55,295 nt of DNA. Origin: Saprospiraceae bacterium (GTDB lineage: Bacteria > Bacteroidota > Bacteroidia > Chitinophagales > Saprospiraceae). The notes under the pieces are model-generated. The model had not been told where the DNA came from. It saw only the letters and a program-made list of their open reading frames with translations, and ran no database searches. Of this stretch, positions 1,271 through 54,109 are shown one piece after another. The stretch is from positions 1 through 55,295 of the forward strand of contig JAIPBL010000037.1 in assembly GCA_021739645.1 (NCBI GenBank), given 5' to 3'. A program made the translations under genes and the position numbers. Numbering within the stretch: position 1 is the first letter of the stretch; every line of letters starts with the position of its first letter.

Positions 1271-1303
1271 TCTAAAGTCTAAAATCTCTTGTCTAATGTC
1301 TCC
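1271..1303. repeat. Short-period 5' leader array before VWA copy 2
   Basis: The phrase TCTAAAGTCTAAAATCTC and a variant of it repeat in the last 40 nt before the ATG at 1310. The array is G-poor on the coding strand. It belongs to the family of locus-specific leader arrays described in the findings. Confidence 0.55.
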
Positions 1304-1309
1304 TACAAC

Positions 1310-2338
1310 ATGTTCCGATTCGAGCATCCATCCTACCTCTATGCATTTGCTTTACTGCCTTTGTTGGCCGTCATGTTCTGGTTGTTTTGGCGCTGGCGCA
1401 AAAAGGCAATTGGCCGTTTTGCGGAGAGCCACCTTGTGCCGCTGCTGATGCCGGAAGCTTCCCGCTGGAAACACCGCCTAAAATTCAGCTTGGTACTGCT
1501 AGCAGTAACTTTCCTCATCGTCGGGGCAGCCAACCCACAGTGGAGCGGCAAGCGGGAAAAGGTCAGGCGAAAGGGCGTGGATATTATCATCGCCCTCGAC
1601 ATTTCGTTGAGCATGTACACCCAGGACATCCTCCCCAGCCGAATAGAACGGGCGAAAAAATTTGCTGGAAAACTCGTTGAAGAATTGAAAGGCAACCGTG
1701 TGGGTATCGTCTATTTTGCTGGGGAAGCCTACCTCCAAATGCCCGTCACCACGGACTATACCGTTACCCAGATGTTCCTCCGCATCGCCAGCCCCGACAT
1801 GGCGGGAACGCAAGGCTCGGCCATTGGCGAGAGCATCAGCATTGCCCGCACGGCGCTCAAAGACAGCGGTAAGGACTCGTATAAGGTGCTCGTGCTCATC
1901 ACAGATGGCGAGGACACGGGCGGCAAGGCCGTGGAGGAAGCCCAAAAAGCACGGGAAGAAGGCGTCATTCAGTTCACCATTGGCGTCGGCACGACGAAAG
2001 GGGCGCCCATTCCCATCCTATCGAACGGGGCATGGCAGTACAAGCAGGACGATAACAAGGAGGTTGTGCTGTCCCGCCTCAACGCTACAATGCTGCGGGA
2101 CCTCGCCGAAAAGGGCGGCGGCATGTATTTCAACGTCATGGACGGCGACGATGCCGTGGCCGACGCCTTGCAAGCCCGGATTGACAAGCTGGAGAAAAGG
2201 GATTTCGAAGTACAGGGATTTACCTCCTTCGACAGCTATTTCCAGTATTTCGTCTTCATCGCCCTTGCGCTGCTGGTGGTGGATTGGTTCGTCTCTTGGC
2301 GGAAGGGGAGGCTGGAGGGGCGGGATTTGTTTGGGTGA
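1310..2338 (+). CDS. VWA domain protein, BatA/BatB-like (copy 2)
   Basis: This 342-residue paralogue of the preceding gene has the same architecture: two N-terminal membrane helices, a VWA domain with intact MIDAS (DISLS, D97/S99/S101), and a C-terminal helix. The ATG at 1310 is preferred over an in-frame TTG at 1289, because it gives the same N-terminus (MFRFEHPSYLYAF) and exact length as copy 1. Divergence is low in the N-terminal membrane region and higher in the C-terminal half of the VWA domain. In the known Bat operon, BatA and BatB are paired VWA proteins, so the duplicates may act as a heteromeric pair. The 137 nt between the genes holds no frame, only a leader array. Confidence 0.88.
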   Translation: MFRFEHPSYLYAFALLPLLAVMFWLFWRWRKKAIGRFAESHLVPLLMPEASRWKHRLKFSLVLLAVTFLIVGAANPQWSGKREKVRRKGVDIIIALDISLSMYTQDILPSRIERAKKFAGKLVEELKGNRVGIVYFAGEAYLQMPVTTDYTVTQMFLRIASPDMAGTQGSAIGESISIARTALKDSGKDSYKVLVLITDGEDTGGKAVEEAQKAREEGVIQFTIGVGTTKGAPIPILSNGAWQYKQDDNKEVVLSRLNATMLRDLAEKGGGMYFNVMDGDDAVADALQARIDKLEKRDFEVQGFTSFDSYFQYFVFIALALLVVDWFVSWRKGRLEGRDLFG

Positions 2339-2390
2339 GGCGGTGTTGCCTCACGTCGATTGGTTGGTAGGATAAGCTGGTACAAGTGCT

Positions 2391-2454
2391 GCTAACGTTT
2401 AGGCTATGCGCAGTGTCCCGAAGGGCATTGCGTATAGGTGTTGTTGTGTGGCGT
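2391..2454 (+). repeat. attC-like flanking element, left side of CPBP cassette
   Basis: The element begins with GCTAACGTTTAGGC. It contains an imperfect hairpin in which CTATGCGCA (2404-2412) pairs with TTGCGTATAG (2428-2437) around TCCCGAAGGG. It ends with GTTGTGTGGCG, 6 nt before the stop codon of the CPBP gene. The layout (TAACGTT core, imperfect stem, GTTGTGTG end) resembles attC-like repeats I recall flanking single-gene cassettes in Bacteroidota. No integrase is visible here. Confidence 0.5.
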
Positions 2455-2459
2455 TTCAT

Positions 2460-3146
2460 TTATTTATTTATTAGTTGAAAGGCCCAATCATAGAAGATTC
2501 GGTCCTTGTTCAGGTAGATTAGAGTTAATCCAATCGTATCATAAAAACCATGTGTAAATACGAGCAAAGCAAGATTAGTTCTGTTCTTGTAAAATGTAAA
2601 AAAGAATATTGTACTTGCTAATCCCACGGCAATCATTCCAGAAGTTCCTTGATAGTTATGAGAAACTCCAAAATAAACTGAGAGTACAATAGCTGAGATA
2701 AGCCAAGATTTGTTAGAATTTCCAAAAAATTCAGCAAGATGTTTCATGTAATAACCACTAAACAAGAATTCTTCTCCAAAAGCGGCAAATATCCACATGA
2801 TTAAAAACAGAGGAAGAAAGCTGGCAAAATCCCCTCTTATTTCCTCTATTGAACTCAAATCAATCTTTCCAAAGTATATTTCCAAAAATGGCTGTATACA
2901 TATATCGATTATGAGAAATATAGCTATTGCAAGTAATAAACCTTTCAAAATAGTTCTGAGACTTATTTTTTGCCCAAACCCAAATTTCGCCCAATTCCAA
3001 CCACTTTTCCACAGCAAGAATAGAGCAATAAAAAGACCAAAAAAGTACCCAAAATTTCTATCGGCAATAGACAATATAGGTGCAACAATCATTACGACTA
3101 TTACTATGAAGGGCTTTGAAAGGAAATTGAAAAATTTATTTATCAT
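2460..3146 (-). CDS. CPBP family intramembrane protease (Abi/CAAX type)
   Basis: This 228-residue polytopic membrane protein has the three CPBP motifs: a glutamate pair at E125-E126, FGVSH (H163) and HGFYD (H199/D203). The family cleaves membrane-associated substrates and includes prenyl-protein proteases and bacteriocin-immunity proteins. The first motif normally reads EExxxR, but here it is EEFLFS, so serine replaces the arginine at position 130. Several hydrophobic helices (about 12-28, 35-47, 66-82, 110-125, 149-162, 170-186, 193-211) support the assignment. The gene is far richer in A+T than its neighbours and is bracketed by inverted attC-like repeats, which suggests recent horizontal acquisition. 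Its substrate cannot be inferred. Confidence 0.8.
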   Translation of the reverse strand: MINKFFNFLSKPFIVIVVMIVAPILSIADRNFGYFFGLFIALFLLWKSGWNWAKFGFGQKISLRTILKGLLLAIAIFLIIDICIQPFLEIYFGKIDLSSIEEIRGDFASFLPLFLIMWIFAAFGEEFLFSGYYMKHLAEFFGNSNKSWLISAIVLSVYFGVSHNYQGTSGMIAVGLASTIFFFTFYKNRTNLALLVFTHGFYDTIGLTLIYLNKDRIFYDWAFQLINK

Positions 3147-3160
3147 TTCTGTTTTTTAAT

Positions 3161-3222
3161 GACACACAACATTTGCATACATGCCAAATGGCGTATATTT
3201 CCGCTTCAGACGACGTTTGAGC
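3161..3222 (-). repeat. attC-like flanking element, right side of CPBP cassette
   Basis: On the minus strand this reads from an AACGTC core through an imperfect stem (ATACGCC near GGCATGTAT) to GTTGTGTGTC. It stops 14 nt before the CPBP start codon. It shares the GTTGTGTG end with the left element but in opposite orientation, so both ends point into the gene. The remaining stretch to 3408 is C/A-rich on the plus strand and holds no gene. Confidence 0.45.
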
Positions 3223-3408
3223 AGTTTCGTACAAAAATATATCTCTTGCGAGCGTATTTTATGCGAACTAGCCTTACAATTTCAACCCATCCACCAGCCT
3301 TAACCTCGTTCAACACACCTCCACTTCCCAGCAAATCTAAACACCCCATCCAATAATCCTATCAATCATAGTATTAATTCCCCCCAAATCCATCGTCAGT
3401 TCCCATCT

Positions 3409-5538: not shown

Positions 5539-5578
5539 CAACGAGGGTTTATGGATATGGAATTTTGAGGATTCAATG

Positions 5579-5586
5579 CAAAATTA
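5579..5586 (-). promoter_or_regulatory. -7 promoter element for ligA
   Basis: The minus strand reads TAATTTTG, an exact match to the Bacteroidota -7 consensus TAnnTTTG, followed by a C/A-rich leader and the ligA ATG. No clear -33 TTG at standard spacing was found. Confidence 0.5.
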
Positions 5587-5587
5587 T

Positions 5588-5749
5588 TCAAGCATCTCTG
5601 GTTATCCACCAAAGAAAGTCTTTAGGCGATGGCATATAAGTGAGTTTTCCGTTTAGTAGCTCATAAGGTGCCCCTTCGGGCAATTTCATATAATCCTCCG
5701 TCGTGTAGTTGCTTTTATTTTTTACGGTCAACAGCACGTATTCTCTCAT
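5588..5749 (-). pseudogene. Truncated Uma2-family endonuclease remnant
   Basis: A 53-residue frame starting MREYVLLTVKN carries the characteristic N-terminal signature of Uma2 (DUF820) nucleases: Y-T-x-E-D-Y, then LPEG, PYELLNGKL and MPSP. Intact members run to about 180-200 residues with the catalytic core after MPSP. Here the frame leaves the family after PKDFLW and stops next to the ligA promoter, so only the first quarter remains. An open extension upstream to 5884 shows no family resemblance. This is a decayed copy or the end product of a deletion. Confidence 0.6.
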
Positions 5750-5928
5750 TTTGTCCCGGTAGAGCAGCACGTTTTTATCCAAGAGCGCATACTTTCGCCC
5801 TTCCAGTTTTTTTGGCAAAATCGGTGACCTTGTGAAAAGACTGCTCTCTGTTAGCCCGTAATGGAATGGATGTGGCCATGGCACTTACGTTTTGAACAAA
5901 AATAGGGGATTTGAAAGAAAATGAAAAC

Positions 5929-6351: not shown

Positions 6352-6367
6352 TTGATTGATTGTTGAG

Positions 6368-6430
6368 ATTGTTGGATTGCTAAATTGTTACGGGCTAAAT
6401 AACAATTCAACAATATAGCAATCCAACAAT
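6368..6430. repeat. Inverted array between MocA-type and RidA genes
   Basis: The left arm (6368-6389, ATTGTTGGATTGCTAAATTG and on) and the right arm (6401-6430) are near-reverse complements around an 11-nt spacer. The right arm abuts the stop codon of the MocA-type gene, and the left arm ends 16 nt before the RidA start. On the coding strand the sequence is G/T-rich after the stop and C/A-rich before the start. Confidence 0.7.
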
Positions 6431-7581
6431 TAAATCTTTACCCATTTCGCCTCGCTCTTCCCGCTTGCAATTACTTTTTCGATAAACTTCATCCCACGTA
6501 CCCCGTCGCTCACGGTCGGAAAATCTTGGTAAACGGAGTCAACCTGCTTGCCATCCAGGCGGGCGCGAACGCAGTAGGCAAAGTTGCGGTAAATATTGGC
6601 GAAGGCTTCCAGATAGCCCTCTGGGTGACCACCGGGGATGCGAGCATGGGCAGCAGCAGCTGGGTAGAGCGTACCTCCGCCCGTGCGCAGGATTTCCATC
6701 GGCCTGTCTAACCATTTGACAATGAGCGAGTTGGGCTCCATCTGAAACCACTGCAAGCCCGCCTTCGTGCCGTAGATGCGGATGTTCAGGTTGTTTTCTT
6801 CCCCAGCACAGATTTGGCTGGCATGGAGCACACCTTTTGCGCCACTGTCAAAATGGAGCAGCACGTTTCCGTCATCGTCGAGCAAGCGGCCTTCCACGAA
6901 GGTGCTGATGTCGGCGCAAAGCTCCGTGATTTGCAGCCCAGAAATGTACTCGGCAAGGTTCTCGGCGTGAGTGCCGATGTCGCCCATTGCGCCAGCGATG
7001 CCCGACTTCGTGGGGTCGGTGCGCCAGCCAGCTTGCTTGCTGCCAGTGTCCTCCACCTTGGTAGTAAGCCAGCCCTGTGGGTACTCCACCACGATTTTTC
7101 GGATTTGACCAATGTCGCCGTTTTTTACCATCGCACGGGCCTGTTTCACCATCGGGTAGCCGGTGTAGTTGTGCGTGAGGGCGAAGAGGAGGCCTGTTTC
7201 TTCCACCAGTTTTTGCAGGTGGAGCGCCTCTTCCATATTGAAACAAAGCGGCTTGTCGCATACGACGTGGAAGCCGTTTTCCAAGGCCATTCGAGCTGGG
7301 GCGTAGTGCATGTGGTTCGGCGTGACGATGCTCACGAAGTCCATGCGTTTGCTTTCTGGCAGCTTTTTTTCTTCCAACATCATTTCCTCGAAACTGCCGT
7401 ACGCCCGTGCCGGGTCAATGCAAAGGTCTTCGCCGGAGAGCTTTGATTTCTCAGCATTGGAGCTGAACGCCCCGCAAACCAGTTCAATTTCGCCATCCAG
7501 CGCGGCAGCCATGCGGTGTACCCCGCCGATGAAGGCACCCCGGCCACCGCCGACCATGCCCATTCGTATTTTCCGTTTCAT
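6430..7581 (-). CDS. Gfo/Idh/MocA family NAD(P)-dependent oxidoreductase
   Basis: This 383-residue cytoplasmic oxidoreductase has an N-terminal Rossmann domain starting [12 protein letters not shown]. The conserved catalytic-lysine segment reads CDKPLC (EKP in many members), and the C-terminal domain begins near GDIGQI and contains DIGTHAEN. The family oxidises or reduces sugars and inositols at a ring hydroxyl. The start is [10 protein letters not shown] at 7581, because the upstream extension is a leader array. The preceding gene encodes a DUF1080 lipoprotein. DUF1080 (3-keto-disaccharide hydrolase) and MocA-type oxidoreductases are known partners in 3-keto-glycoside metabolism, so a role in glycan or glycoside use is a reasonable inference. 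Confidence 0.9.
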
Positions 7582-7590
7582 AAGTTTTTT

Positions 7591-7666
7591 AATGATGAAT
7601 GATAAATGGTGGAATGATGAATCAATTGCGGGTGAGCCAAAATTCATCATTCTACCATTCATCATT
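7591..7666. repeat. Inverted array between DUF1080 and MocA-type genes
   Basis: The left arm (7591-7622, built from AATGATGAAT phrases) is inverted in the right arm (7642-7666). The right arm overlaps the stop codon of the DUF1080 gene, and the left arm ends 9 nt from the MocA-type start codon. The unit differs from that of the next array downstream, so each junction has its own phrase. Confidence 0.7.
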
Positions 7667-12721: not shown

Positions 12722-13192
12722 TCAACTATTTAACCGCCCCTTCGACTTCATCATCCTGTCTATATCACGCTTAGAGTCTTTTGCCTTGATGGATTCTCGT
12801 TTATCGAACGATTTTTTGCCCTGCGCCAGGGCGATTTCCACTTTCACCAAGTTTCTGTCGGAGAAATAAATCTTGTAGGGCACGATGCTCAAGCCCTTTT
12901 CCTTCACCCTTTTTTCCAGCTTGCGCAATTCGGATTTATGCAGCAGCAGCTTGCGGTCACGACGAGAGGGACGAGCACTGTAGGAATTGGCGTTTTCGTA
13001 TTCCTTGATGTACATGCTTTTTATCCAAAGCTCCCCGTGGATAAACATACAATAGGCATCGCTGAGGCCAGCATGTCCCGCCCGAATGGACTTCAACTCT
13101 GCCCCGCCCAGTACAATGCCCGCCTCCAAATTGGAGAGGAATTGGTATTCGTGAGAGGCTCGACGGTTGACTATTTCTTTTGGTTGTGCCAT
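12722..13192 (-). CDS. smpB: SsrA-binding protein SmpB
   Basis: This trans-translation factor binds tmRNA and mimics the anticodon arm in stalled ribosomes. The 156-residue protein has the OB-fold core with NRRASHEY near the N-terminus, GAELKSIR, and AYCMFIHGELWI. A basic C-terminal tail (KAKDSKRDIDRMMKSKGRLNS) folds into the mRNA channel in characterised homologues. The length is typical. No tmRNA gene was recognised in the window. A short leader array precedes the start codon. Confidence 0.96.
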   Translation of the reverse strand: MAQPKEIVNRRASHEYQFLSNLEAGIVLGGAELKSIRAGHAGLSDAYCMFIHGELWIKSMYIKEYENANSYSARPSRRDRKLLLHKSELRKLEKRVKEKGLSIVPYKIYFSDRNLVKVEIALAQGKKSFDKRESIKAKDSKRDIDRMMKSKGRLNS

Positions 13193-13196: not shown

Positions 13197-13230
13197 TTTG
13201 GTTGATGGTTCCGGGGTTAAAGGTTCAACG
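13197..13230. repeat. Leader array before smpB
   Basis: On the plus strand, GGTTGATGGTTCCGGGG and GGTTAAAGGTTCAACGG repeat a GGTT phrase. On the smpB coding strand this becomes a C/A-rich stretch ending 4 nt from the ATG. Confidence 0.5.
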
Positions 13231-15107: not shown

Positions 15108-16670
15108 ATGCTGAAACAACAACTTACTCATAAGTTACAACAGAAACTTTCCCCACAACAGATCCAGCTGATGAAGCTTTTGCAGATACCAACTGCAATC
15201 CTTGACCAACGGATACAGGAAGAATTGGAAGCCAACCCTGCACTGGAAGAAGGCGACATCTTGGAAGAAGAATCCATGGAATTAGGCCGGACAGAGGACA
15301 CCAAAGCGGAAGACGACCAAGCTGAACGTGAAAACGACGGCGAGGGGGAAAACGAGGTGGATGACCTAGAGCGGGAAGAGACCATGCCGGAAGAAGAGGT
15401 GTTGCTTGACGACTACCTCAACGACTACATGGACGACGACGAAGCCAGCTACAAATACCAAGCAGAGAATGGTGGGCAAGATGAAGAAAATAAGACCTTG
15501 CCTGTAGCCGTGGAGGACACTTTCCACGAATACCTCGAAACGCAGATCGGCATGCTCGATTTCAAAGAAGAAAGGGAGCGCATCATTGCTCGGCAGATCG
15601 TCGGCAGCATTGATGACGACGGCTACCTGCGCCGTGAGAACGATGCCATCCTCGACGACTTGGTGTTTTCACAAAACGTGAGCGCCCGGCCAGAGGAAAT
15701 CGAATTTTGGCTTGCCAAAATTCAGCGCTTCGACCCACCGGGTGTAGGTGCAAGAAACCTTCAGGAAAGCCTGCTGCTCCAGATTGAGCACAAGATGACT
15801 AGGACGGAAACCGCCTTTGATGAGCGGCTTATCCTGCAGATTTCCCGCAAAATCATTGCGAACTACTTCGATGAGTTCACCAAGAAGCACTACCAGCGCC
15901 TCCAACGCCAGCTCAGTCTCACCGAAGACGAACTGAAAGAAGCCATTGACGAGATACTCAAGCTGAACCCGAAGCCAGCCAGCGGCCACGTCACGAACTC
16001 CCGCAGCACGCACTACATCGTGCCGGATTTCATCATCATCAACAACGATGGCGAACTGGAACTTTCGCTCAACTCCCGCAATGCGCCTGACCTCCACATC
16101 AACAACCACTACCGCGACATGCTGCGCTCCTACAAGCACACCGTCACCGGACGTCGGGCTACGAACAAGGAGAAGGAGGCCATCATGTTCATCAAGCAGA
16201 AGATTGACAGCGCCAAATGGTTCATTGATGCCATCCGCCAGCGGCAGCAGACGATGTTCAACACGATGTACGCCATCATGAACTACCAGTACGATTACTT
16301 CACGAGCGGCGACCAGAAATGCCTCCGCCCGATGATTTTGAAGGACATCGCCGACATTACCGGGCTGGACATCTCCACCGTTTCACGGGTGGCCAACAGC
16401 AAATTCGTGCAGACGGAGTTCGGTACCAAGCGCCTCAAGGACTTCTTCTCCGAAAGCCTCCAGACACAGGACGGCGAGGAGGTTTCCACTTTGGAAGTGA
16501 AGAAAATCCTCACCGACATCATCAGCGCCGAGAACAAGCGCAAGCCGCTTTCGGACGAAAAGCTGAAAAGCATGTTGATGAAAAAGGGCTACAACATCGC
16601 CCGCCGCACCGTGGCGAAGTACCGGGAGCAATTGAATATCTCGGTGGCGAGGTTGCGCAAAGAGCTTTAA
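15108..16670 (+). CDS. rpoN: RNA polymerase sigma-54 factor
   Basis: Sigma-54 directs RNA polymerase to -24/-12 promoters that need an AAA+ activator. The 520-residue protein has the glutamine-rich activator-interacting region I (about 1-50, LSPQQIQLMKLLQIP), a long acidic region II (about 45-140, here very rich in D/E), the core-binding region, a helix-turn-helix (ITGLDISTVSRVANSKFV), and the C-terminal RpoN box ARRTVAKYREQL. The length and acidic linker are typical of Bacteroidota. No sigma-54 activator gene lies in the window. Confidence 0.97.
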   Translation: MLKQQLTHKLQQKLSPQQIQLMKLLQIPTAILDQRIQEELEANPALEEGDILEEESMELGRTEDTKAEDDQAERENDGEGENEVDDLEREETMPEEEVLLDDYLNDYMDDDEASYKYQAENGGQDEENKTLPVAVEDTFHEYLETQIGMLDFKEERERIIARQIVGSIDDDGYLRRENDAILDDLVFSQNVSARPEEIEFWLAKIQRFDPPGVGARNLQESLLLQIEHKMTRTETAFDERLILQISRKIIANYFDEFTKKHYQRLQRQLSLTEDELKEAIDEILKLNPKPASGHVTNSRSTHYIVPDFIIINNDGELELSLNSRNAPDLHINNHYRDMLRSYKHTVTGRRATNKEKEAIMFIKQKIDSAKWFIDAIRQRQQTMFNTMYAIMNYQYDYFTSGDQKCLRPMILKDIADITGLDISTVSRVANSKFVQTEFGTKRLKDFFSESLQTQDGEEVSTLEVKKILTDIISAENKRKPLSDEKLKSMLMKKGYNIARRTVAKYREQLNISVARLRKEL

Positions 16671-16741: not shown

Positions 16742-18283
<1,542 letters not shown>

Positions 18284-18286: not shown

Positions 18287-18331
18287 TTGGATTTACAATT
18301 TTGGATTTACGATTTACGATTCGGAGCGCCT
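18287..18331. repeat. Leader array before the carboxylase gene
   Basis: Phrases TTGGATTTAC and GATTTACGATTTAC repeat within 45 nt, beginning 4 nt from the ATG. On the coding strand the array is C/A-rich with almost no G. I do not see a gene in the rest of the 305-nt gap. Confidence 0.65.
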
Positions 18332-18414: not shown

Positions 18415-18591
18415 AAGTTGGCAGTTCGACAGTTGGCAGTGCGCAGTCAGTTTGACAGTTGTTTAGCAGAGTATTCTTTCAAATGATAAGAGCGAGGTCG
18501 GTTGCCCAATCTCGCTCTTTTATATTTATGTTATGAATTGCTGGGTAAGCAGTTCCTGACTGCAAACTGCCCACTGTCGAACTGCCAACTA
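18415..18591. repeat. Paired inverted arrays flanking a terminator
   Basis: The left array (18415-18461) repeats GGCAGTT/GACAGTT phrases. The right array (18550-18590) is a close inverted copy that overlaps the stop codon of the bifunctional nuclease gene. A hairpin terminator lies between them. The left array contains GGCAGTGCGCAGTCAG (18435-18450), which recurs almost exactly inside the large outer-membrane gene near 42095. Confidence 0.65.
18488..18523 (-). terminator. Terminator of the bifunctional nuclease gene
   Basis: AAGAGCGAG (18488-18496) and CTCGCTCTT (18511-18519) form a 9-bp stem. A T-run follows on the plus strand and an A-run precedes it less strongly. It lies about 70 nt past the nuclease stop codon. 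Confidence 0.7.
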
Positions 18592-19200
18592 TCCTTCCTC
18601 CTTCCGCCGATTGATTTCGTCCCGAATCTTGGCAGCCTGCTCGTAGTCCTCTTTGCCGAGCACGTCTTCGAGCAGTCGGGAGAGTTCTTCCACGGAGTAG
18701 GAACTGAGGGCCGCACCTTTGGCCGCACGCTGCTTGGTAGCAGCACCACCGCCACGGCTAGTAGAAGCTTTTTTGGTAGCGCCTTCTGGCTCTTCGAGTA
18801 CCACGCCAGCGGCGTCGAGGATGAACTCGTAGGTAAAAATTGGACAGTTGAAGCGCACGGCCATGGCAAGTGCATCGGAGGTGCGGGAGTCAATTTCATG
18901 TATCTCGCCGTTGCGCTCGCAGACCAGCCGGGCGTAGAAAATCCCGTCCAGCAAGTTATTGATGATAACCTCCTTGAGGTCAACGTTGAAGGTTTCAAAG
19001 GCATTCTTGAACAGGTCGTGGGTCAAAGGACGGTTGGGGGCCATGCGTTCCATGGCAACGGCAATGGCCTGTGCCTCGAACCCGCCGATGACGATGGGCA
19101 GCCGACGGGTGCCGTTTTGCTCGCCCAGAACCACGGCGTAATTGTGCGATTGCGTGACGCTGTGGGATAGGGCAACTATGTCGAGTTCTATTTTTTTCAT
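18589..19200 (-). CDS. Bifunctional nuclease family protein (DUF151) with UVR motif
   Basis: This 203-residue protein starts MKKIELDIVALSHS. The DUF151 domain (about 1-135) has LPIVIGGFEAQAIAVAM and the SRTSDALAMAVRF motif; plant and bacterial homologues show RNase/DNase activity. A low-complexity linker rich in A, K and G (about 140-168) leads to a C-terminal UvrB/UvrC-type helical motif (SRLLEDVLGKEDYEQAAKIRDEINRR). That motif mediates protein contacts in UvrABC and in Clp-associated McsA. DUF151 plus UVR is a known architecture in Bacteroidota. The ATG at 19200 is preferred over a TTG three codons upstream. Confidence 0.9.
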   Translation of the reverse strand: MKKIELDIVALSHSVTQSHNYAVVLGEQNGTRRLPIVIGGFEAQAIAVAMERMAPNRPLTHDLFKNAFETFNVDLKEVIINNLLDGIFYARLVCERNGEIHEIDSRTSDALAMAVRFNCPIFTYEFILDAAGVVLEEPEGATKKASTSRGGGAATKQRAAKGAALSSYSVEELSRLLEDVLGKEDYEQAAKIRDEINRRKEEG

Positions 19201-19220: not shown

Positions 19221-19252
19221 ATTGGTTGACGGTTGTGGGTTGACGATTGACA
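19221..19252. repeat. Leader array before the bifunctional nuclease gene
   Basis: GGTTGACGGTTG, GGGTTGACG and ATTGACAG repeat a GTTGAC phrase. On the coding strand it is C/A-rich and ends about 20 nt before the start codon. The stretch 19253-19536 contains plus-strand frames without family features; I see no gene there. Confidence 0.55.
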
Positions 19253-23301: not shown

Positions 23302-23338
23302 ATTGTTTGAGATTGTTTGATGGTTGTTTGGGATTGCA
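23302..23338. repeat. Leader array before the GCS2-like/CBS gene
   Basis: TTGTTTGAGATTG, TTTGATGG and TTGTTTGGGATTG repeat a TTGTTTG phrase. On the coding strand this is a C/A-rich, G-free stretch ending 7 nt before the ATG. Confidence 0.6.
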
Positions 23339-25844: not shown

Positions 25845-26621
25845 ATGCTCACTACCATAATTTCTTACAACGTCAATGGCTTTCGTGCTGCCGCAAAAAA
25901 AGGTTTGTTCGATTGGCTGAAGCAAGAAAACCCCGACATCATTTGTTTTCAGGAAACAAAAATGCAGCCCGACCAAGTGGAGGCAGCGCCTTTCGAGGCA
26001 CTTGGTTACACTTCCCATTTTTGGCATTCGGCGGAGAAGAAGGGCTACAGCAGTGTCGCCACTTTTTCAAAAAAAATACCCGACCAAGTGGTGCTGGGCT
26101 GTGGCATTGAAAAATATGACCGGGAAGGCCGCATCCTCCGCACCGACTTCGGCGACTGGACGCTGCTCAATTGTTACTTCCCTTCGGGAACGAGCGGGGA
26201 GGAGCGGCAGGGTTTCAAGTACGGGTTCCTCGATGATTTTTTCAACTGGATTGCGGAGCTAAAAAAAGAGCGCCCCAAGCTCATCATCGTGGGCGACTAC
26301 AACATCGCCCACACCGACATTGACATTCACAGCCCGAAGACCAACCAAAAGTCCTCTGGCTTTCTGCCCGAGGAGCGGGCCTGGATGACCAAGTGGTTCG
26401 AAAGCGGCTTCACCGATGCCTTCCGGCACATCAATCCCGACAAACGGGACGACTACTCCTGGTGGAGTGCACGATTTAATTCACGGGCCAACAACAAAGG
26501 CTGGCGCATTGATTATCAGTCGGTTACCAATAATTTGAGGGATAAAATACTTGATGCCCGCCACCTCGGCGAAGCTGTCCATTCTGACCATTGCCCGGTA
26601 CTAATGAAGATTGACATTTAA
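25845..26621 (+). CDS. xth: Exodeoxyribonuclease III (AP endonuclease)
   Basis: This base-excision-repair enzyme cuts abasic sites and trims 3' blocked ends. The 258-residue protein shows the exonuclease-endonuclease-phosphatase fold motifs: SYNVNGFRAA, CFQETKMQ (metal-binding Glu), GDYNIAH (Asp/Asn), YSWWSARFNSRANNKGWRIDY and a terminal SDHCPV (catalytic Asp-His). Length and motif order match xth/exoA. The start is ATG at 25845; the upstream in-frame extension is intergenic. It converges on ribA across an inverted array that may act as a shared terminator. Confidence 0.95.
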   Translation: MLTTIISYNVNGFRAAAKKGLFDWLKQENPDIICFQETKMQPDQVEAAPFEALGYTSHFWHSAEKKGYSSVATFSKKIPDQVVLGCGIEKYDREGRILRTDFGDWTLLNCYFPSGTSGEERQGFKYGFLDDFFNWIAELKKERPKLIIVGDYNIAHTDIDIHSPKTNQKSSGFLPEERAWMTKWFESGFTDAFRHINPDKRDDYSWWSARFNSRANNKGWRIDYQSVTNNLRDKILDARHLGEAVHSDHCPVLMKIDI

Positions 26622-26700
26622 CGGTTTCAGGTTTTTGGTTTCAGGTTTCAGGGTTGGCACGGCACTTCCCTGCAACTTGAAACCTTAAACCAAAAACCGT
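26621..26700. repeat. Inverted array between convergent xth and ribA
   Basis: The left arm (26621-26653) is built of GGTTTCAGG and GTTTTTGG phrases. The right arm (26668-26700) is its imperfect inverse, ending 2 nt before the ribA stop. Because the genes converge, both 3' ends are G/T-rich on their coding strands, in line with the rule seen at other loci. Confidence 0.7.
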
Positions 26701-26701
26701 T

Positions 26702-47981: not shown

Positions 47982-47983
47982 GG

Positions 47984-49544: not shown

Positions 49545-49550
49545 TATCAT

Positions 49551-49609
49551 TAGTCAATGAGGATATTTTTTGTTTAAAACAAACACCTCAATGACCATTG
49601 ACAATTAAC
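49551..49609. repeat. Inverted array between parA and its partner
   Basis: TAGTCAATGAGG with TTTTTTGTTT (49551-49575) is inverted as AAACAAACACCTCAATGACC plus a second ATTGAC (49578-49606). On the coding strand the sequence after the parA stop is G/T-rich and that before the next start is C/A-rich. Confidence 0.6.
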
Positions 49610-49622
49610 TTGATTCAGCATT

Positions 49623-50144
49623 TTGAGCAAAAAGAAATTCACAGACGGACTCGAAAGCCTCTTTTCCAAAGACAACGTCAAGGAGAGCGGGCAGGGTACT
49701 ACCTTCTTGGAGGGCATCAACTCTGACGAGATGAAGCCTGGTGTCGGTAAGTCAACTGTGACAAAAAGCTCTTCCCGCAAGAACTTCACCACCGACCTCG
49801 ATTCCCTACTGCAAGAGGCCATGCAGGAGTCCTTCGATGAGCAAATCAAAGAAAAAGAAACTGCCGCCAACACACCCAAGGCGCAACCTTTCCACCAACA
49901 GGCGCATCGCCGCAAGCCACTCAGCGGTCTTGATATGCTTATTCGCCGTACAGTGGAGCGTGGCGACGTTGAGGAAGACCAAGTGTCTGGCACCCGGCGC
50001 CTCACAGTCAGCTTCGACAAAGCAAAACTCAACAAACTCAAAATCATTGCTCGCATGGAAAAGGCCTACCTCAAAGACATCCTGGGCGACATCGTAGAGG
50101 AATATATCAGGCGCTATGAAAATAAGAAGGGTAGCGTCGAATGA
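49623..50144 (+). CDS. Ribbon-helix-helix partner of ParA with three ParB-box-like motifs
   Basis: This 173-residue protein starts with TTG: a stop lies 10 nt upstream in frame and no ATG intervenes. The C-terminal 50 residues form a ribbon-helix-helix: strand GTRRLTVSF (123-131), then helices LNKLKIIARM and LKDILGDIVEEYIRRYE. Three related motifs lie in the otherwise disordered N-terminal part: KKFTDGLESLF (4-14), RKNFTTDLDSLL (52-63) and RRKPLSGLDMLI (96-107). These resemble the basic GLDALL-type N-terminal box by which ParB contacts ParA. It therefore looks like a DNA- or protein-binding adaptor for the upstream ParA rather than a ParB. Confidence 0.72.
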   Translation: MSKKKFTDGLESLFSKDNVKESGQGTTFLEGINSDEMKPGVGKSTVTKSSSRKNFTTDLDSLLQEAMQESFDEQIKEKETAANTPKAQPFHQQAHRRKPLSGLDMLIRRTVERGDVEEDQVSGTRRLTVSFDKAKLNKLKIIARMEKAYLKDILGDIVEEYIRRYENKKGSVE

Positions 50145-50181
50145 GTTGTCAGTAGATAGTTAGCATCTGCTTCACCTCATA

Positions 50182-50218
50182 AAAAAGCGCAACCACTCAA
50201 TAGGTGGCTGCGCTTTTT
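50182..50218 (+). terminator. Terminator after the parA unit
   Basis: AAAAAGCGCAACCAC and GTGGCTGCGCTTTTT form a stem with one mismatch around a 7-nt loop, shortly after the stop codon at 50144. The U-run is clear, and it also faces the convergent fadD gene. Confidence 0.85.
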
Positions 50219-50255
50219 AGTTAGGGTGTCCTGTCCTGAAATAGGGTTAAATTTT

Positions 50256-51920
50256 TTACCCATGCTCCTCCCGCAGCTTCCGCCGCAAAATCTTCCCCAC
50301 GTTCGTCTTTGGCAACTCCTTTCTAAACTCCACGGACTTCGGCATTTTATAGCCAGTTAATCCTTGACGACAATGCTCCAGCAGTTCTTTTTCGGTGAGT
50401 GATTGATCTTTTTTTACCACATAAATTTTCACCACCTCGCCTGACTTTTCGTCGGGCACACCGATGGCGGCGCATTCCAGCACTTTCGGATTCTCCATCA
50501 CCATGTCCTCAATTTCGTTGGGATAAACGTTGAAGCCAGACACGAGAATCATGTCCTTTTTGCGGTCAACAATTTGGAAATAGCCGTCCGGGTGCATCAG
50601 GCCGATGTCGCCAGTGCCGAGCCATCCGTCCTTGATGGTTTGGGCAGTGGCATCGGGGCGGTTGTAGTAGCCCTTCATCACCTGTGGGCCTTTGATTTGA
50701 ATTTCACCCGTTTCGCCTTGCGGCAACGGGTTCCCGGCATCGTCCACGATGCGCATATCGGTGGAAGGCACGGGAAGTCCTATGCAACCGACTCGGCCCG
50801 AACCATCGAGCGGATTCACGCTGGCCACGGGTGAAGATTCCGTCATGCCATAGCCCTCGATGAGTGGTGCACCCGTCACCTTGCGCCATTTTTCGGCCAC
50901 CACCTTCTGCACAGCCATGCCGCCACCGAGGGCGAAGCGCAGGGCGCTAAAGTCTTGCGAAGCAAAATCGGGGTGGTTGAGCAGTGCGTTGAACAGGGTA
51001 TTTACCCCCGTCATAATGGTCACCTTGTGGTCTTTGAATTCCTTCATCACCGATGGCAAGTCACGGGCATTGACCACCAGCACCGTAAGTGCCCCAAGGC
51101 TGAACAGCGCCAAGCAGTTGACCGAAAAAGCGAAAATATGGTACAGCGGTAGCGGTGATAGCCCAACCTCGTTTTCACCCATGCCCGACGGTGCAATCCA
51201 CGCACTGATCTGCATCATGTTCGCCACGAGGTTTCGGTTGGTAAGCATGGCGCCCTTGGCAACGCCTGTAGTGCCGCCTGTGTACTGTAGGCAAACCACG
51301 TCCTCTGGACTGTGCTGGATTGGTTTTACCGTAAAACGCTTGCCCTGGTCAAGTGCATAACTAAACGTGACCGTGTTGGGCAGGTTGTAGTTCGGCACCA
51401 TCCGCTTGATGTACCGCACGGCGAAGTCCACAAACCATCCCTTGAAGCCCAACATCTCGCCAATGCTGGTGATGATGACGGTCTTGATTTGCGTATCTGG
51501 CAGCACTTCTTGCAGGTGCGAGGCGAAGTTTTCGCAAATGACGATGGCCTTCACGCCAGAGTCGGTGAACTGGTGGCGCATCTCTCGTGGCGTGTACAGC
51601 GGGTTGGTGTTCACGATGACCAGCCCGGCCCGTAGGCAGCCAAACAGGGCAATCGGATATTGCAACAGGTTGGGCATCATCAGCGCCACTTTGTCGCCAG
51701 GCTCCAAGCCACGGGACTGCAGGTAGGCCCCGAACTGCATGGAATATTTGTCCACTTGGGCATAAGTCAGCGACTTGCCCATGCAGGTAAAGGCTTTTTT
51801 ATTGGAAAACTTCTTGAAGGTTTCGTCCAAAAGGGCCACCAACGAGGGGTAGGCGGTTTCATCAATATTGGCGGGAATTCCCTTCGGGTAATTCGTCAGC
51901 CATGGTCTTTGCTCAGTCAT
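50256..51920 (-). CDS. fadD: Long-chain fatty-acid-CoA ligase
   Basis: This ligase activates fatty acids to acyl-CoA through an acyl-adenylate. The 554-residue protein has the ANL-superfamily signatures: the P-loop YTGGTTGVAKGAML (about 213-226), GYGMTESSPVASVN, WLGTGDIGLMHPDGYFQIVDRKKDMI, and the C-terminal lysine region PKTNVGKILRRKLRE. The N-terminus TEQRPWLTNYPKGIPANID matches proteobacterial and Bacteroidota FadD. It is a single gene with a leader array just upstream. Substrate chain length is inferred from family similarity. Confidence 0.94.
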   Translation of the reverse strand: MTEQRPWLTNYPKGIPANIDETAYPSLVALLDETFKKFSNKKAFTCMGKSLTYAQVDKYSMQFGAYLQSRGLEPGDKVALMMPNLLQYPIALFGCLRAGLVIVNTNPLYTPREMRHQFTDSGVKAIVICENFASHLQEVLPDTQIKTVIITSIGEMLGFKGWFVDFAVRYIKRMVPNYNLPNTVTFSYALDQGKRFTVKPIQHSPEDVVCLQYTGGTTGVAKGAMLTNRNLVANMMQISAWIAPSGMGENEVGLSPLPLYHIFAFSVNCLALFSLGALTVLVVNARDLPSVMKEFKDHKVTIMTGVNTLFNALLNHPDFASQDFSALRFALGGGMAVQKVVAEKWRKVTGAPLIEGYGMTESSPVASVNPLDGSGRVGCIGLPVPSTDMRIVDDAGNPLPQGETGEIQIKGPQVMKGYYNRPDATAQTIKDGWLGTGDIGLMHPDGYFQIVDRKKDMILVSGFNVYPNEIEDMVMENPKVLECAAIGVPDEKSGEVVKIYVVKKDQSLTEKELLEHCRQGLTGYKMPKSVEFRKELPKTNVGKILRRKLREEHG

Positions 51921-51921
51921 A

Positions 51922-51962
51922 ATTTGAAGTTTCGAGTTTTAAGTTTTGGGTTTCGAGTTGGG
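51922..51962. repeat. Leader array before fadD
   Basis: TTGAAGTTTCGAG, TTTTAAGTTTTGGG and TTTCGAGTTGG repeat a GTTTCGAG phrase, starting 2 nt from the fadD start codon. On the coding strand this is C/A-rich and G-poor. Confidence 0.6.
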
Positions 51963-52030
51963 GCTAATTAGGCTAAAATACAAAGTTTATGCTTGATGCA
52001 GGCTTTTATGCCTTTACTTTTTCTTGGCGC

Positions 52031-53173
52031 TCATATTTTGCTCAAAATCGCGGCGGCCTTCGCCAGCGTTTCTTCTTTTTTTGCGAAACAAAGCCGAATG
52101 ACCCGCTCCTGTTTGTTATTGCTGTAAAAAACAGAGACCGGAATGGCCGCTACCCCATGCTCGGTGATGAGCCGTTTCACAAACGCCATGTCCGGCTCGT
52201 TGCTGATGGCCGAGTAGTCGTAAAGCTGGAAGTAAGACCCCTCGCTGTGCAGCGGCTTGAACCTCGAACCTGACATGGCGTTGAGCAGAAAGTCCCGCTT
52301 TTTCTCAAAAAAACTGTTCAGTGTCAGGTACTCCTCCTGCTGCTCGAAGTACTCGGCCACTGCGTACTGCATCGGCGTGTTCACCGCAAAAACGTTGAAC
52401 TGGTGCACCTTGCGGAACTCCTTCGTGAGGTCGGGCGGGGCCACGATGCAGCCGAGCTTCCAGCCGGTGGTGTGCAGCGTTTTACCGAAGGAAAAAACCG
52501 CCATGCCCCGTTCAAAAATCTTGGGGTATCGCAGCAGGCTCTCATGCCGCTCACCGTCGAAGACGAGGTGCTCGTAGGCTTCGTCGCAGAGCACGAAGAT
52601 GTCCCGGTTCACGGCGAGGTGTTGGAGTTCTTTCCAGTCCGATTCCTTCAAAGTTTTACCCGTCGGGTTGTGCGGCGTGTTCACTACAATCATGCGGGTT
52701 TTCCAGGTGATGAGGCGTTCGAGCAGCCGCCAGTCAATGGTATAGTCAGGTCCACTCATTTCGTAGGTGATGGGCCTTCCTGCGTTCACCTCCACAGCGG
52801 GGCGATAGCAATCGTAAGCGGGTTCTATCAAAATCACCTCGTCGTCAGGTCGGATGAAAGTGGAAATGGCGCAGTAGAGTGCCTGCGTGGCGCCGCTGGT
52901 TATGGTGATTTCAGTATCCGGATCCACGCTGAGGCCGTAGAGTGACTGGATTTTTTCAGCCACGATTTTGCGGAGCGCAGGCACACCGGGCATGGGGGCG
53001 TACTGGTTGTGGCCTTGTCGGATGTATTTGTCCACCAGCCCTTTGAGGCGGTCGGAGCAGTCGAAGTCGGGGAAGCCCTGCGCCAGGTTTATGGCTCCAT
53101 GTTCAGCAGCCATAGCTGACATGATGGTAAAAATGGAGGTGCCGACACCCGGAAGTTTGGAAGATAGCAGCAT
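52031..53173 (-). CDS. Methionine-type class I aminotransferase (YbdL-like)
   Basis: This 380-residue PLP aminotransferase of fold type I closely follows the YbdL/kynurenine aminotransferase pattern. The N-terminus has NLAQGFPDFDCSD; SGATQALYCAI and NTPHNPTGK follow; and the PLP lysine is in SFGKTLHTTGWKLG (K231). The latter motif is characteristic of methionine aminotransferases that make or use 2-oxo-4-methylthiobutyrate. An inverted array separates it from the phosphodiesterase gene upstream on the same strand. Substrate assignment rests on family motifs only. Confidence 0.9.
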   Translation of the reverse strand: MLLSSKLPGVGTSIFTIMSAMAAEHGAINLAQGFPDFDCSDRLKGLVDKYIRQGHNQYAPMPGVPALRKIVAEKIQSLYGLSVDPDTEITITSGATQALYCAISTFIRPDDEVILIEPAYDCYRPAVEVNAGRPITYEMSGPDYTIDWRLLERLITWKTRMIVVNTPHNPTGKTLKESDWKELQHLAVNRDIFVLCDEAYEHLVFDGERHESLLRYPKIFERGMAVFSFGKTLHTTGWKLGCIVAPPDLTKEFRKVHQFNVFAVNTPMQYAVAEYFEQQEEYLTLNSFFEKKRDFLLNAMSGSRFKPLHSEGSYFQLYDYSAISNEPDMAFVKRLITEHGVAAIPVSVFYSNNKQERVIRLCFAKKEETLAKAAAILSKI

Positions 53174-53202
53174 CTGTTTAGCGTTCTGATTTGGTTGTGT
53201 CT

Positions 53203-53270
53203 GGTTTCAGGTTTTGGGTTTAACGTTTCAGGGCAGCCCCGTGAAACCTGAAACCAAAAACTTGAAACCC
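53203..53270. repeat. Inverted array between the phosphodiesterase and aminotransferase genes
   Basis: The left arm (53203-53233, GGTTTCAGGTTTTGGG phrases) is inverted in the right arm (53241-53270). The right arm ends exactly at the stop codon of the phosphodiesterase gene. On the coding strand it is G/T-rich after the stop and C/A-rich toward the aminotransferase start. Confidence 0.7.
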
Positions 53271-54020
53271 TCATTCCGTTTTATTCCCTTCGTAATACAC
53301 CACCGCACTTTCCACCACGCCATCTTGGCGGAGTTTGATTTCCCGAAGACCGATTTTCAGGTGGTCGAGCACAAACGCTGGCTCCTGCCATTTCATCTGA
53401 AAATAGGTCGTGGGCGTGATGTGGACGGTCAGGTTTTTCACGCAAAGCATTTTCTCCACGTGGTAATGCCCACAAAAAACATACACCGGGTGCTGGTGGC
53501 CGTACATGACAGCTTGCACCTCGGCCATATTGCGAAGCGGATAGTTTACATCCATATAAGGTACGCCGCCCTCCACGGGTGGGTGGTGCATGAAGATGAT
53601 TGCGGGAGCATTTAATTGCGCCAGCTCCGAGCCGAGCCATTCGAGTTGTGCCTTGGAGACCGTCCCATTAGAGGTTTCGAGCAGCAGCAGGGGCTGGCCA
53701 TTTACCGTCAGTTTATAATAGAGGTCGTCGCCCGTCAGGTGTTTTTCCAGTCCGAACACTTGGGCCAGTATTTTGGAGCTGTCGTGATTGCCACCGATGA
53801 CCGTGTAGGGTAAGCCAAGGGCATCGAGGTGCTGCTTCATCCAGTGATAGACTTTTTCTTCGGGGGTATCAAAAGCAAGGTCGCCGGAGAGGATGAGGAG
53901 GTCGGGGGCGAAGGATTTTGCAGCTTGTAGAATATCCAAAAAATTCTGCCGCACGTCCACCCCATGGGTGAACTCAGTTTCGTTCGCTACGTGCAGGTCA
54001 GTGATTTGAATAAGTTTCAT
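53271..54020 (-). CDS. CpdA-like metallophosphoesterase
   Basis: This 249-residue calcineurin-like phosphoesterase has all five metal motifs: QITDLH (D8/H10), SGDLAFD, IGGNHDS, FMHHPPVEGG and CGHYHVEK. The spacing fits class III 3',5'-cyclic-AMP phosphodiesterases (CpdA/Icc), so cAMP or a related phosphodiester is a likely substrate, though not shown. It has no signal peptide and is cytoplasmic. It is divergent from an McrB-N-like gene, and the two share an inverted array upstream. Confidence 0.85.
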   Translation of the reverse strand: MKLIQITDLHVANETEFTHGVDVRQNFLDILQAAKSFAPDLLILSGDLAFDTPEEKVYHWMKQHLDALGLPYTVIGGNHDSSKILAQVFGLEKHLTGDDLYYKLTVNGQPLLLLETSNGTVSKAQLEWLGSELAQLNAPAIIFMHHPPVEGGVPYMDVNYPLRNMAEVQAVMYGHQHPVYVFCGHYHVEKMLCVKNLTVHITPTTYFQMKWQEPAFVLDHLKIGLREIKLRQDGVVESAVVYYEGNKTE

Positions 54021-54031
54021 GCTACTTTAAT

Positions 54032-54109
54032 GGTTTCAGGTTTTTGGTTTAAAGTTTCAGGTAGGGCAGGTGGGTGAAACCTGAAACTATTGAAACATGA
54101 AACCAAACC
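54032..54109. repeat. Inverted array between divergent genes
   Basis: GGTTTCAGG/GTTTTTGG phrases (54032-54061) are inverted in 54074-54109. Here the genes are divergent, so both leaders are C/A-rich on their own coding strands. The phrase is the same as at 26621-26700 and 53203-53270. Confidence 0.65.

What the first reader, a model, noticed from the sequence alone, without database searches (positions are those of the whole stretch)
1271..54109. Gene-end arrays: C/A-rich before starts, G/T-rich after stops, each locus with its own phrase
About a dozen gene junctions carry short-period arrays (phrases of about 7-10 nt) that differ from locus to locus. Examples are 1271-1303, 6368-6430, 7591-7666, 13197-13230, 18287-18331, 18415-18591, 19221-19252, 23302-23338, 26621-26700, 49551-49609, 51922-51962, 53203-53270 and 54032-54109. 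A single rule fits them. On the coding strand the array just before a start codon is C/A-rich and nearly G-free, and the array just after a stop codon is G/T-rich. Tandem genes therefore get a G/T arm then a C/A arm, convergent genes two G/T ends, and divergent genes two C/A leaders; all three cases occur here. Since this phylum rarely uses Shine-Dalgarno sites, the C/A arrays could be structure-free translation leaders. The pairing into inverted repeats suggests an intercistronic stem or a copying mechanism that spreads both arms together.
Basis: partly seen in the sequence, partly recalled or inferred. Interest (0 to 1): 0.78.

Follow-up and report, generated by a model that had tools for sequence, protein, structure and literature searches.

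The report
Gene-end hairpins with changeable seven-letter phrases
Many gaps between genes in this bacterium hold a hairpin built from a repeated 7-8-letter DNA phrase that sits right against the gene ends, and related species often keep a hairpin at the same spot but spell both of its arms with a different phrase, which suggests that such gaps are copied and rewritten as whole units.

Summary
The arrays are real. They belong to a dispersed class of intergenic hairpins built from degenerate 7-8-nt phrases (34.9, 47.5 and 67.5 per Mb in samples of three congeneric genomes). Array hairpins are G/T-first in 75 cases, C-first in 3, unskewed in 3; convergent gaps, which have no start codon, give 18:0. 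Rehm 2015 states the same rule for one heptamer family each in Xanthomonas and Nostoc, so the rule is not new. Structure-free leaders are not supported: in folding predictions with the upstream arm these leaders are more paired. What looks new: many phrases in one genome; at 11 of 14 orthologous junctions that could be compared, species differ in phrase, in both arms; hairpins hug or overlap stop codons; one genome carries one phrase at eight junctions within 11 kb, one a clean insertion between stop and start, one a replacement. A Chloroflexota genome shows the same chirality, several phrases and stop-hugging. Best reading: self-propagating arrays copied between gene ends as units. The enzyme, and my proposal of G/T 3'-end copying during repair, are inference.

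The parts
1271..1303 (.). one-armed GTCTAAA-type array, C/A/T-rich on +, overlapping the mechanically called TTG start at 1289
6368..6389 (+). 5' G/T arm of ATTGTTGG/ATTGCTA hairpin
   Evidence: orthologous junction
6409..6430 (+). 3' C/A arm of the same hairpin, against the stop of the minus-strand gene 6430-7563
7598..7622 (+). 5' arm of AATGATG hairpin
   Evidence: other copies in the genome; orthologs
7642..7666 (+). 3' arm of AATGATG hairpin, overlapping the stop of the next minus-strand gene
13197..13230 (+). one-armed degenerate GGTTGATGG array before the start of the minus-strand gene 12722-13192; the orthologous gap is 9 nt in G008
18287..18331 (+). one-armed GATTTAC array before the start of the minus-strand gene 16742-18283
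18416..18450 (+). 5' arm of AGTTGGC hairpin
18556..18590 (+). 3' arm of AGTTGGC hairpin, ending in the stop of the minus-strand gene 18589-19200
19221..19252 (+). one-armed degenerate GGTTGAC array (by eye)
23302..23338 (+). one-armed ATTGTTTGAG array at a divergent junction; G012 carries a GGATTGAA hairpin there
26620..26653 (+). 5' arm of GGTTTCA hairpin, convergent junction, overlapping a stop codon by 2 nt
26668..26701 (+). 3' arm of GGTTTCA hairpin, flush with the other stop codon
49551..49562 (+). 5' arm of a degenerate GTCATTG hairpin (by eye)
49586..49609 (+). 3' arm of the GTCATTG hairpin; G005 and G011 carry a GTTTGATG-type phrase here
51922..51962 (+). one-armed GAGTTTT/GAGTTTC array before the start of the minus-strand gene 50256-51920
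53203..53233 (+). 5' arm of GGTTTCA hairpin
53239..53269 (+). 3' arm of GGTTTCA hairpin; G003 has the same phrase, G005, G006, G008 and G011 an ATTGTTG phrase, G012 nothing
54032..54061 (+). 5' arm of GGTTTCA hairpin, divergent junction
54075..54109 (+). 3' arm of GGTTTCA hairpin; G008 has the same phrase, G003 and G012 a GGTATTGGGAATT phrase

Best explanation
These are members of a dispersed, self-propagating class of gene-end hairpins made of degenerate 7-8-nt phrases. Shown here: the arm read outward from either flanking gene is G/T-rich, so the pair is nearly always G/T-loop-A/C; the unit sits flush against, and often inside, the stop codon; it occurs in many phrase families per genome; between related species the site is kept while both arms carry another phrase, or the site is empty; one genome carries one phrase at neighbouring junctions. 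Inferred: existing arrays act as templates. When an intergenic gap is broken or opened and trimmed back to the gene ends, the outward 3' ends (G/T strand on both sides) copy a donor array, often a nearby one, with slippage on the 7-nt unit, and the two extended ends are joined. That writes the same new phrase into both arms and leaves the array flush with the codons. The G/T bias of the 3' end could come from RecA's preference for TGG-type single strands. Trimming cannot go far into a gene without killing it, which would fix the position at stop and start codons. Any effect on mRNA is secondary.
For: Chirality 75:3 (3 unskewed) in three congeneric genomes, 18:0 in convergent gaps; 27:4 distinct hairpins at score >=22 in 80 loci of a multi-phylum pattern scan, with 50 array sites without partner; 24:2 (6 unskewed, 5 of them N-run artefacts) in 400 kb of Oscillochloris. 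Stop-hugging: 69 of 91 stop-side arms overlap the stop or begin within 10 nt, versus 25 of 59 start-side arms; Oscillochloris 20 of 25 versus 5 of 23. Both arms respelled: of 66 junctions examined, 14 give 63 species pairs in which both hold an array hairpin; the phrase differs in 39 pairs at 11 junctions. Among the 24 same-phrase pairs the two arms of a hairpin match each other better than the same arm of the other species in 16. Spread: GGTTTAG at eight junctions in 11 kb of G008, with an insertion between stop and ATG that is absent in four of five relatives, and a GGATTGCG hairpin of five relatives replaced; neighbours share phrase in G008 (p=2e-4). Phrase word order is shared between loci in Fibrella (p=0.0016 with 53 arms; p=0.0024 with one arm per site, 36 arms). 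RecA preference for TGG repeats: abstract of PMC3763553.
Against: No enzyme or intermediate was identified, and breaks were not observed. Phrase clustering is absent in G003 and weak in G000, and the G008 signal rests mostly on one cluster. In 8 of 24 same-phrase pairs the same arm is closer between species than the two arms within a hairpin. Priming by microhomology with the stop codon was tested and not found beyond 1-2 nt: the whole stop continues the array period in 7 of 99, the same as the preceding codon. The predicted rise in divergence towards the loop is weak (0.18-0.28 in arms, 0.35-0.38 at the centre). One-armed arrays follow the outward rule only weakly here (16:6, p=0.052). For the query holding two window arrays, no match longer than 60 nt exceeds 84% identity among 58 matches (itself apart), with 40 of 104 candidates scored, so no fresh copy was seen. 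Clean C-first heptads exist: one GAGGCGT-type array in Oscillochloris.
Confidence: 0.42

Rival explanations
1. Selected RNA hairpin at mRNA 3' ends or between cistrons (protection against 3' exonucleases, processing or termination). Any stem will do, so the spelling is free to drift or be replaced.
For: Found at junctions that contain a stop codon and depleted between divergent genes: 55/639 tandem, 18/157 convergent, 2/164 divergent (divergent vs tandem p=2.7e-4, vs convergent p=1.1e-4). Hugs stops. Stem kept while spelling changes. Rehm 2015 reports that the majority of its repeats are transcribed (abstract passage).
Against: Does not explain the chirality or the 7-8-nt period, since a stem of either handedness pairs equally well. 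Not ordinary intrinsic terminators: a T run follows in 3 of 73 array hairpins versus 56 of 154 plain hairpins in tandem and convergent gaps. At some junctions relatives do without: G012 has 0 nt at window 53174-53270, and four relatives have nothing between stop and ATG at one G008 hairpin.
Confidence: 0.25
2. Purely local mutation: slippage makes a 7-nt array, and a G/T-rich nascent strand snaps back on itself by G.T pairing to copy a second arm; no copying between loci.
For: Would explain gene-independent chirality, one phrase for both arms, and lone arrays (reasoning; no call tests it directly).
Against: Phrase families and word order are shared between loci, neighbouring junctions share phrase in G008, and a complete hairpin stands at a site empty in four relatives with the neighbours' phrase.
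Confidence: 0.15
3. REPIN-like miniature elements moved by a Y1 (RAYT) transposase.
For: Dispersed inverted pairs in gaps between genes; Y1_Tnp matches in G000 (7), G003 (3), G008 (3) and Fibrella (3), some weak or broken.
Against: No Y1_Tnp match in Oscillochloris, which has 412+412 four-unit GATT-heptad matches, nor in bacterium A37T11. Many phrases per genome and no fixed core seen.
Confidence: 0.07
4. One reading: C/A arrays are structure-free translation leaders, and the G/T arms follow from pairing.
For: Leaders without arrays are also G-poor; the 25-nt C/A leader alone is predicted more open.
Against: Convergent gaps, which have no start, are 18:0 G/T-first; arrays are rare at divergent gaps (2 of 164); with the upstream arm included the leader is predicted less open; tandem hairpins lie a median 2 nt from the stop and 14 nt from the start.
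Confidence: 0.05
5. G-quadruplex elements, as proposed for the Xanthomonas and Nostoc heptamers.
For: Same strand and position rule in that study; 28 of 75 G/T arms have four or more GG tracts, which could allow two-layer quadruplexes.
Against: 43 of 75 arms have no GGG tract and none has four.
Confidence: 0.03

Closest known systems
GGGAATC (Xanthomonas) and GGGGA(T/C)T (Nostoc PCC 7120) heptamer repeats, Rehm et al. 2015, PMC4692102
   Same: 7-nt unit, mostly intergenic, paired in 'convergent' orientation (70 and 75 cases in the two Xanthomonas genomes), preferably within 50 bp of a stop on the sense strand or of a start on the antisense strand, overlapping stop codons, under-represented between divergent ORFs (sections 11 and 13 and passages read).
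   Different: There one G-rich phrase was studied per genome, few inverted pairs were found in Nostoc, and increased genomic stability is reported around the repeats. Here many phrases per genome, 43 of 75 arms without any GGG tract, and both arms respelled at orthologous sites.
Heptanucleotide P6b stem of the Nostoc tRNA-Leu intron, Class I TDNGATT and Class II NNTGAGT, Kaasalainen et al. 2015, PMC4476775
   Same: Hairpin of 7-nt words of the same GATT/GAGT types; one class repeatedly replaces the other at a fixed site (passages read). Of four cyanobacterial introns read by eye, the Nostoc FACHB-892 one is clearly G/T-first with GATTTTG words, one looks alike, two were not judged.
   Different: A single RNA-gene locus with two classes, not a genome-wide set of gene-end hairpins.
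TAACTGA direct repeats of Beggiatoaceae, Cyanobacteria and some Bacteroidetes, MacGregor 2015, PMC4679880
   Same: 7-nt arrays next to start codons; indels mostly in 7-nt increments between two close Cyanothece strains (abstract and one section read).
   Different: One heptamer, direct repeats (one indirect repeat in BOGUAY), mostly before starts in that genome; no stop-hugging inverted pairs reported in the parts read.
REPINs and RAYTs, PMC3116915
   Same: Dispersed inverted doublets forming hairpins (passages read).
   Different: Fixed 16-mer core and transposase link there; here no fixed core seen, and no Y1 transposase match in two carriers.

Membership tests
Gene-end heptamer repeats of the Rehm 2015 type | 7-nt tandem unit between genes | tested here: met
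   lags 7, 14 and 21 enriched, lags 8 and 16 also; 36 lag-7 and 24 lag-8 arrays in 490 gaps versus 0.4 and 0 in shuffles
Gene-end heptamer repeats of the Rehm 2015 type | G-rich strand outward from the ORF, close to stop (sense) or start (antisense) | tested here: met
   49 of 57 skewed arrays; 75:3 hairpins; lone arrays weaker, 16:6
Gene-end heptamer repeats of the Rehm 2015 type | depleted between divergent ORFs | tested here: met
   2 of 164 versus 55 of 639 tandem
Gene-end heptamer repeats of the Rehm 2015 type | G-tracts able to form three-layer quadruplexes | tested here: not met
   of 75 arms, 43 have no GGG tract, 18 one, 11 two, 3 three, 0 four; no folding assay
REPIN | inverted doublet forming a hairpin | tested here: met
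REPIN | associated RAYT (Y1) transposase | tested here: not met
   no match in Oscillochloris and A37T11, which carry the arrays; proximity in G000, where matches exist, was not examined
Intrinsic terminator | stem followed by a T run | tested here: not met
   3 of 73 versus 56 of 154 plain hairpins
TAACTGA repeats | TAACTGA direct repeat | tested here: not met
   exact double unit in 2 of 412 fetched loci, both cyanobacterial (Nostoc, Nodularia); none in the fetched loci of this genome or its relatives
Structure-free translation leader | leader more open than other leaders | tested here: not met
   predicted 0.430 versus 0.528 with the upstream arm; 0.772 versus 0.659 for the leader alone

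The most novel reading that the evidence does not exclude
A bacterial counterpart of interstitial telomere repeats: G/T-outward arrays at both ends of an intergenic gap serve as recombination-ready 3' ends. After a break, resection runs back to the array or the gene end, and both ends are rebuilt by copying a donor array, so the spelling changes but the handedness does not. The arrays would then guard gene ends in several phyla and explain gene-end heptamers in Cyanobacteria, Xanthomonas, Bacteroidota and Chloroflexota with one repair-based mechanism.
Probability: 0.15. Interest if true: 0.88.

Novelty: new variant of a known kind. Interest (0 to 1): 0.62.

Why it matters
In the papers seen here, heptamer arrays at gene ends are described one phrase at a time. 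The data here suggest one phenomenon: a fixed handedness and a fixed place, with a spelling that differs in both arms between related species. If so, intergenic sequence in these genomes is from time to time overwritten as a unit, which bears on promoter and UTR evolution, on comparative genomics of operons, and on how bacteria repair breaks between genes. The handedness, shared by this GC-50% genome and a GC-68% Chloroflexota genome, is a sharp target for a mechanism.

Tried and rejected
Leader hypothesis as cause of the rule: rejected by convergent gaps and by predicted accessibility. Intrinsic terminators: T-run test negative. RAYT mobilisation: two carriers give no Y1_Tnp match. Stop-codon microhomology priming: only the last two stop bases match the array period more often (0.51 each), which base composition alone may give; whole-codon continuity 7 of 99, the same as the preceding codon. 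Divergence gradient from gene end to loop: weak; one bin with an indexing fault (8 alignment columns) ignored. Stops in all frames as a reason for 7-mers: considered and dropped because several phrases carry no stop (no call). Rfam at gathering threshold: 0 matches in the window. No tRNA in the window. Neighbour clustering not reproduced in G003. Literature: in the rows listed by the full-text searches I saw no paper on multi-phrase respelling at orthologous gene ends; some of these searches matched hundreds of papers and listed few, most subscription journals are not held there, and the original cyanobacterial STRR papers are recalled only.

Limits of the statistics: genes were called by a home-made dicodon caller trained on each genome, so start positions are approximate. 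Gaps outside 15-400 nt (15-350 in Oscillochloris; 20-600 or 25-600 in the own-genome scans) were dropped. 'Array' needs a lag score of 7 or more, and a few of the 75 are not clean heptads; of the three C-first ones, one is a TTTCGTT-type repeat and the others are not clean heptads. For orthologous junctions I chose array-rich segments, the window, and the G008 cluster, so the share of changed phrases is not a genome average; species pairs at one junction are not independent. In one search the 39 'different' pairs fulfil 'within better than between' almost by construction, so only the 24 same-phrase pairs inform (16 to 8). In one search, 56 of 112 species-junction cells pass the hairpin test; the other 56 include visible but degenerate arrays as well as empty sites. 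One search counts some hairpins from both arms; one search is the de-duplicated count, and two of its four C-first rows are a second look at loci that also count as G-first. The Fibrella word test left out one arm of another phrase (TAC words).

Full report
What is in the window. The 13 stretches are degenerate tandem phrases at gene junctions. TRF or an ungapped lag scan finds 10 of them; 13197, 19221 and 49551 are seen only by eye. Seven are inverted pairs with a G/T arm on the left and a C/A arm on the right (six by hairpin score; 49551 by eye); six have one arm.

Beyond chance. In 268 gaps of a 455-kb sample of the same genome, runs of 8 or more matches occur 23 times at lag 7, 22 at lag 14, 12 at lag 21, 14 at lag 8 and 15 at lag 16, against 1, 1, 1, 3 and 0 in one dinucleotide shuffle. 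Of 240 gaps up to 350 nt, 49 hold a hairpin scoring 28 or more; none of 720 shuffled gaps does. In 490 gaps of 832 kb, 36 lag-7 and 24 lag-8 arrays are found, against 0.4 and 0 in shuffles and 1.8 and 1.4 for coding DNA scaled to the same length. Of 57 skewed arrays (14 unskewed set aside), 49 obey the outward rule.

Chirality and place. Three congeneric genomes were sampled (G000 832 kb, G003 400 kb, G008 400 kb; 960 gaps of 15-400 nt). Of 81 array hairpins, 75 are G/T-first, 3 C-first and 3 unskewed; in convergent gaps 18 are G/T-first, none C-first, 1 unskewed. Plain hairpins are 74:32, with 59 unskewed. G/T-first array hairpins occupy 55 of 639 tandem, 18 of 157 convergent and 2 of 164 divergent gaps. 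In tandem gaps the outer edge lies a median 2 nt from the stop and 14 nt from the start (p=5e-6). Of 91 stop-side arms 26 overlap the stop and 43 begin within 10 nt; of 59 start-side arms 1 overlaps and 24 are within 10 nt. One-armed arrays follow the rule less strictly (16 to 6, p=0.052, with 17 arrays dropped because a partner arm was detectable).

Not a leader device. Gaps without arrays already show G-poor leaders (coding-strand G .131, C .227 over 392 starts) but no G/T excess of this kind after 330 stops (G .208, C .201). In tandem gaps of 50-160 nt the 20 nt before the start are predicted less open with an array (0.430, n=45) than without any hairpin (0.528, n=251); only when the leader is folded alone is it more open (0.772 versus 0.659). 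A T run follows 3 of 73 array hairpins in convergent and tandem gaps versus 56 of 154 plain ones, so these are not ordinary intrinsic terminators. Nor are three-layer quadruplexes general: 43 of 75 arms have no GGG tract and none has four.

Both arms are respelled together. Orthologous junctions were read in congeneric genomes, located by anchors of up to 250 nt in the flanking genes that are about 67-96% identical. At window 53174-53270 G000 and G003 spell GGTTTCA, G005, G006, G008 and G011 spell ATTGTTG, and G012 has nothing between the genes. At 54021-54167 G000 and G008 spell GGTTTCA, G003 and G012 GGTATTGGGAATT. At C132:116100 four species use four phrases, and at one G008 junction five species use five spellings. 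Of 66 junctions examined in chosen, array-rich segments, 24 hold at least one hairpin passing the array test, and 14 allow 63 species-pair comparisons; the phrase differs in 39 pairs at 11 junctions. Among the 24 same-phrase pairs the two arms of a hairpin are closer to each other than to the same arm of the other species in 16 and not in 8.

Spread. In G008 the GGTTTAG phrase stands at eight junctions within 11 kb of one region; orthologous junctions were found in relatives for six of them. At one, four of five relatives have the stop directly followed by ATG (G003 has other DNA there), and G008 has the hairpin exactly between the two codons. At another, five of five relatives share a GGATTGCG hairpin filling the space from TGA to ATG, and G008 has GGTTTAG instead. 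Of the relatives only G013 shows the phrase, at two of the eight. Neighbour sharing is significant in G008 (22 similar pairs below 10 kb against 5.4 expected, p=2e-4), suggestive in G000 (mean similarity below 3 kb p=0.019, but similar-pair count p=0.13) and absent in G003. In G000 and G013 one upstream ORF takes its TGA stop from the array itself (frame read by eye). Phrase families are shared between loci, and in Fibrella the order of words within arms is shared between loci (p=0.0016 with 53 arms; p=0.0024 with one arm per site).

Other phyla. The 80 returned loci come, by record title, from Bacteroidetes, Cyanobacteria, Chloroflexi, Acidobacteria, Planctomycetes, Verrucomicrobia, Patescibacteria, and delta- and gammaproteobacterial lineages. 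After de-duplication 27 hairpins are G/T-first and 4 C-first, and 50 array sites have no partner; by long ORFs the 27 lie in tandem (9), convergent (7) and divergent (2) gaps, inside an ORF (5) or at a locus edge (4). Whole genomes give 412+412 four-unit matches in Oscillochloris sp. ZM17-4 against 0+1 for the reversed control pattern, and 44+50 against 0 in Fibrella aquatilis (Bacteroidota); in the two cyanobacteria the reversed control is itself abundant, in Nostoc more so than the pattern. In 400 kb of Oscillochloris (Chloroflexota; GC 68%) array hairpins are 24 G/T-first to 2 C-first with 6 unskewed (5 of them N runs), use several phrases (AATGTTG, AGGGGAC, GATTGCA, GTTGAGT), and 12 of 25 stop-side arms overlap the stop codon with 8 more within 10 nt. 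One of the C-first ones is a clean heptad. The tRNA-Leu intron of a Nostoc carries a GATTTTG-type hairpin with the same handedness, clear in one of four introns read; that is no protein-gene end.

What it most likely is. The place and handedness are kept while the spelling differs as a unit and can sit at neighbours. I read this as arrays that propagate by being copied. The specific model (gap broken and trimmed to the gene ends, G/T 3' ends on both sides copying a donor array, ends joined) is inference. It would account for flush codons, common phrase, chirality, replaced spelling and local donors. RecA's preference for TGG repeats is from the abstract of PMC3763553, which also says that RecA does not use Chi as a nucleation site. 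Against the model stand the absent enzyme, the weak gradient inside arms, the negative stop-codon register test, and the lack of fresh near-identical copies of two window arrays (capped scoring). A selected mRNA 3'-end stem is the main rival; it explains stop-hugging and free spelling but not handedness or period.

Known kinds. Kaasalainen et al. 2015 (PMC4476775, passages read) describe replacement of one heptad class by another in a Nostoc intron stem. MacGregor 2015 (PMC4679880, abstract and one section read) describes TAACTGA arrays near starts. In the rows listed by the searches I saw no text that reports many phrases per genome with both arms respelled at orthologous gene ends, or local phrase spread; subscription journals are mostly not covered.

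Host.

Noticed in passing
window 18488-18521: A terminator-like hairpin (AAGAGCGAG...CTCGCTCTTTT) sits in the 105-nt loop between the two arms of the AGTTGGC hairpin.
   Followed up: no
own genome, e.g. C56:137941, C56:138719, C80:113038, C132:217409 (sample coordinates): A separate dispersed palindrome family, GTAACACGGACTGCCAGTCCGTG..., not heptad-based.
   Followed up: no
own genome C132:222025-222316 and C80:32705-32912: A ~200-bp nested hairpin element with GTGCCGTTAGGCAC and GCGTACCTACGGCACGC arms in two copies.
   Followed up: no
G005, junction orthologous to window 53174-53270: The gap is 467 nt: extra DNA of several hundred nt lies between the two ATTGTTG arms, which still hug the two genes.
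   Followed up: partly
three congeneric genomes and Oscillochloris: Plain hairpins also lean G/T-first (74:32; 60:3); part may be decayed arrays.
   Followed up: no
Nostoc sp. FACHB-892 and Sphaerospermopsis genomes: The reversed control pattern TTAGNNNTTAG... is itself abundant (74/51 and 161/236 matches), so TTAG-type heptads are another cyanobacterial phrase.
   Followed up: no
window 15108-16670 +: RNA polymerase factor sigma-54 (TIGR02395, 384.9 bits, over cut-off).
   Followed up: no
G008 L339, about 12.2-14.9 kb: Repeated CATCCCCCTAACCCCCTTCAAAGGGGGAATT blocks in gaps, a further dispersed palindromic repeat also seen in G000.
   Followed up: no
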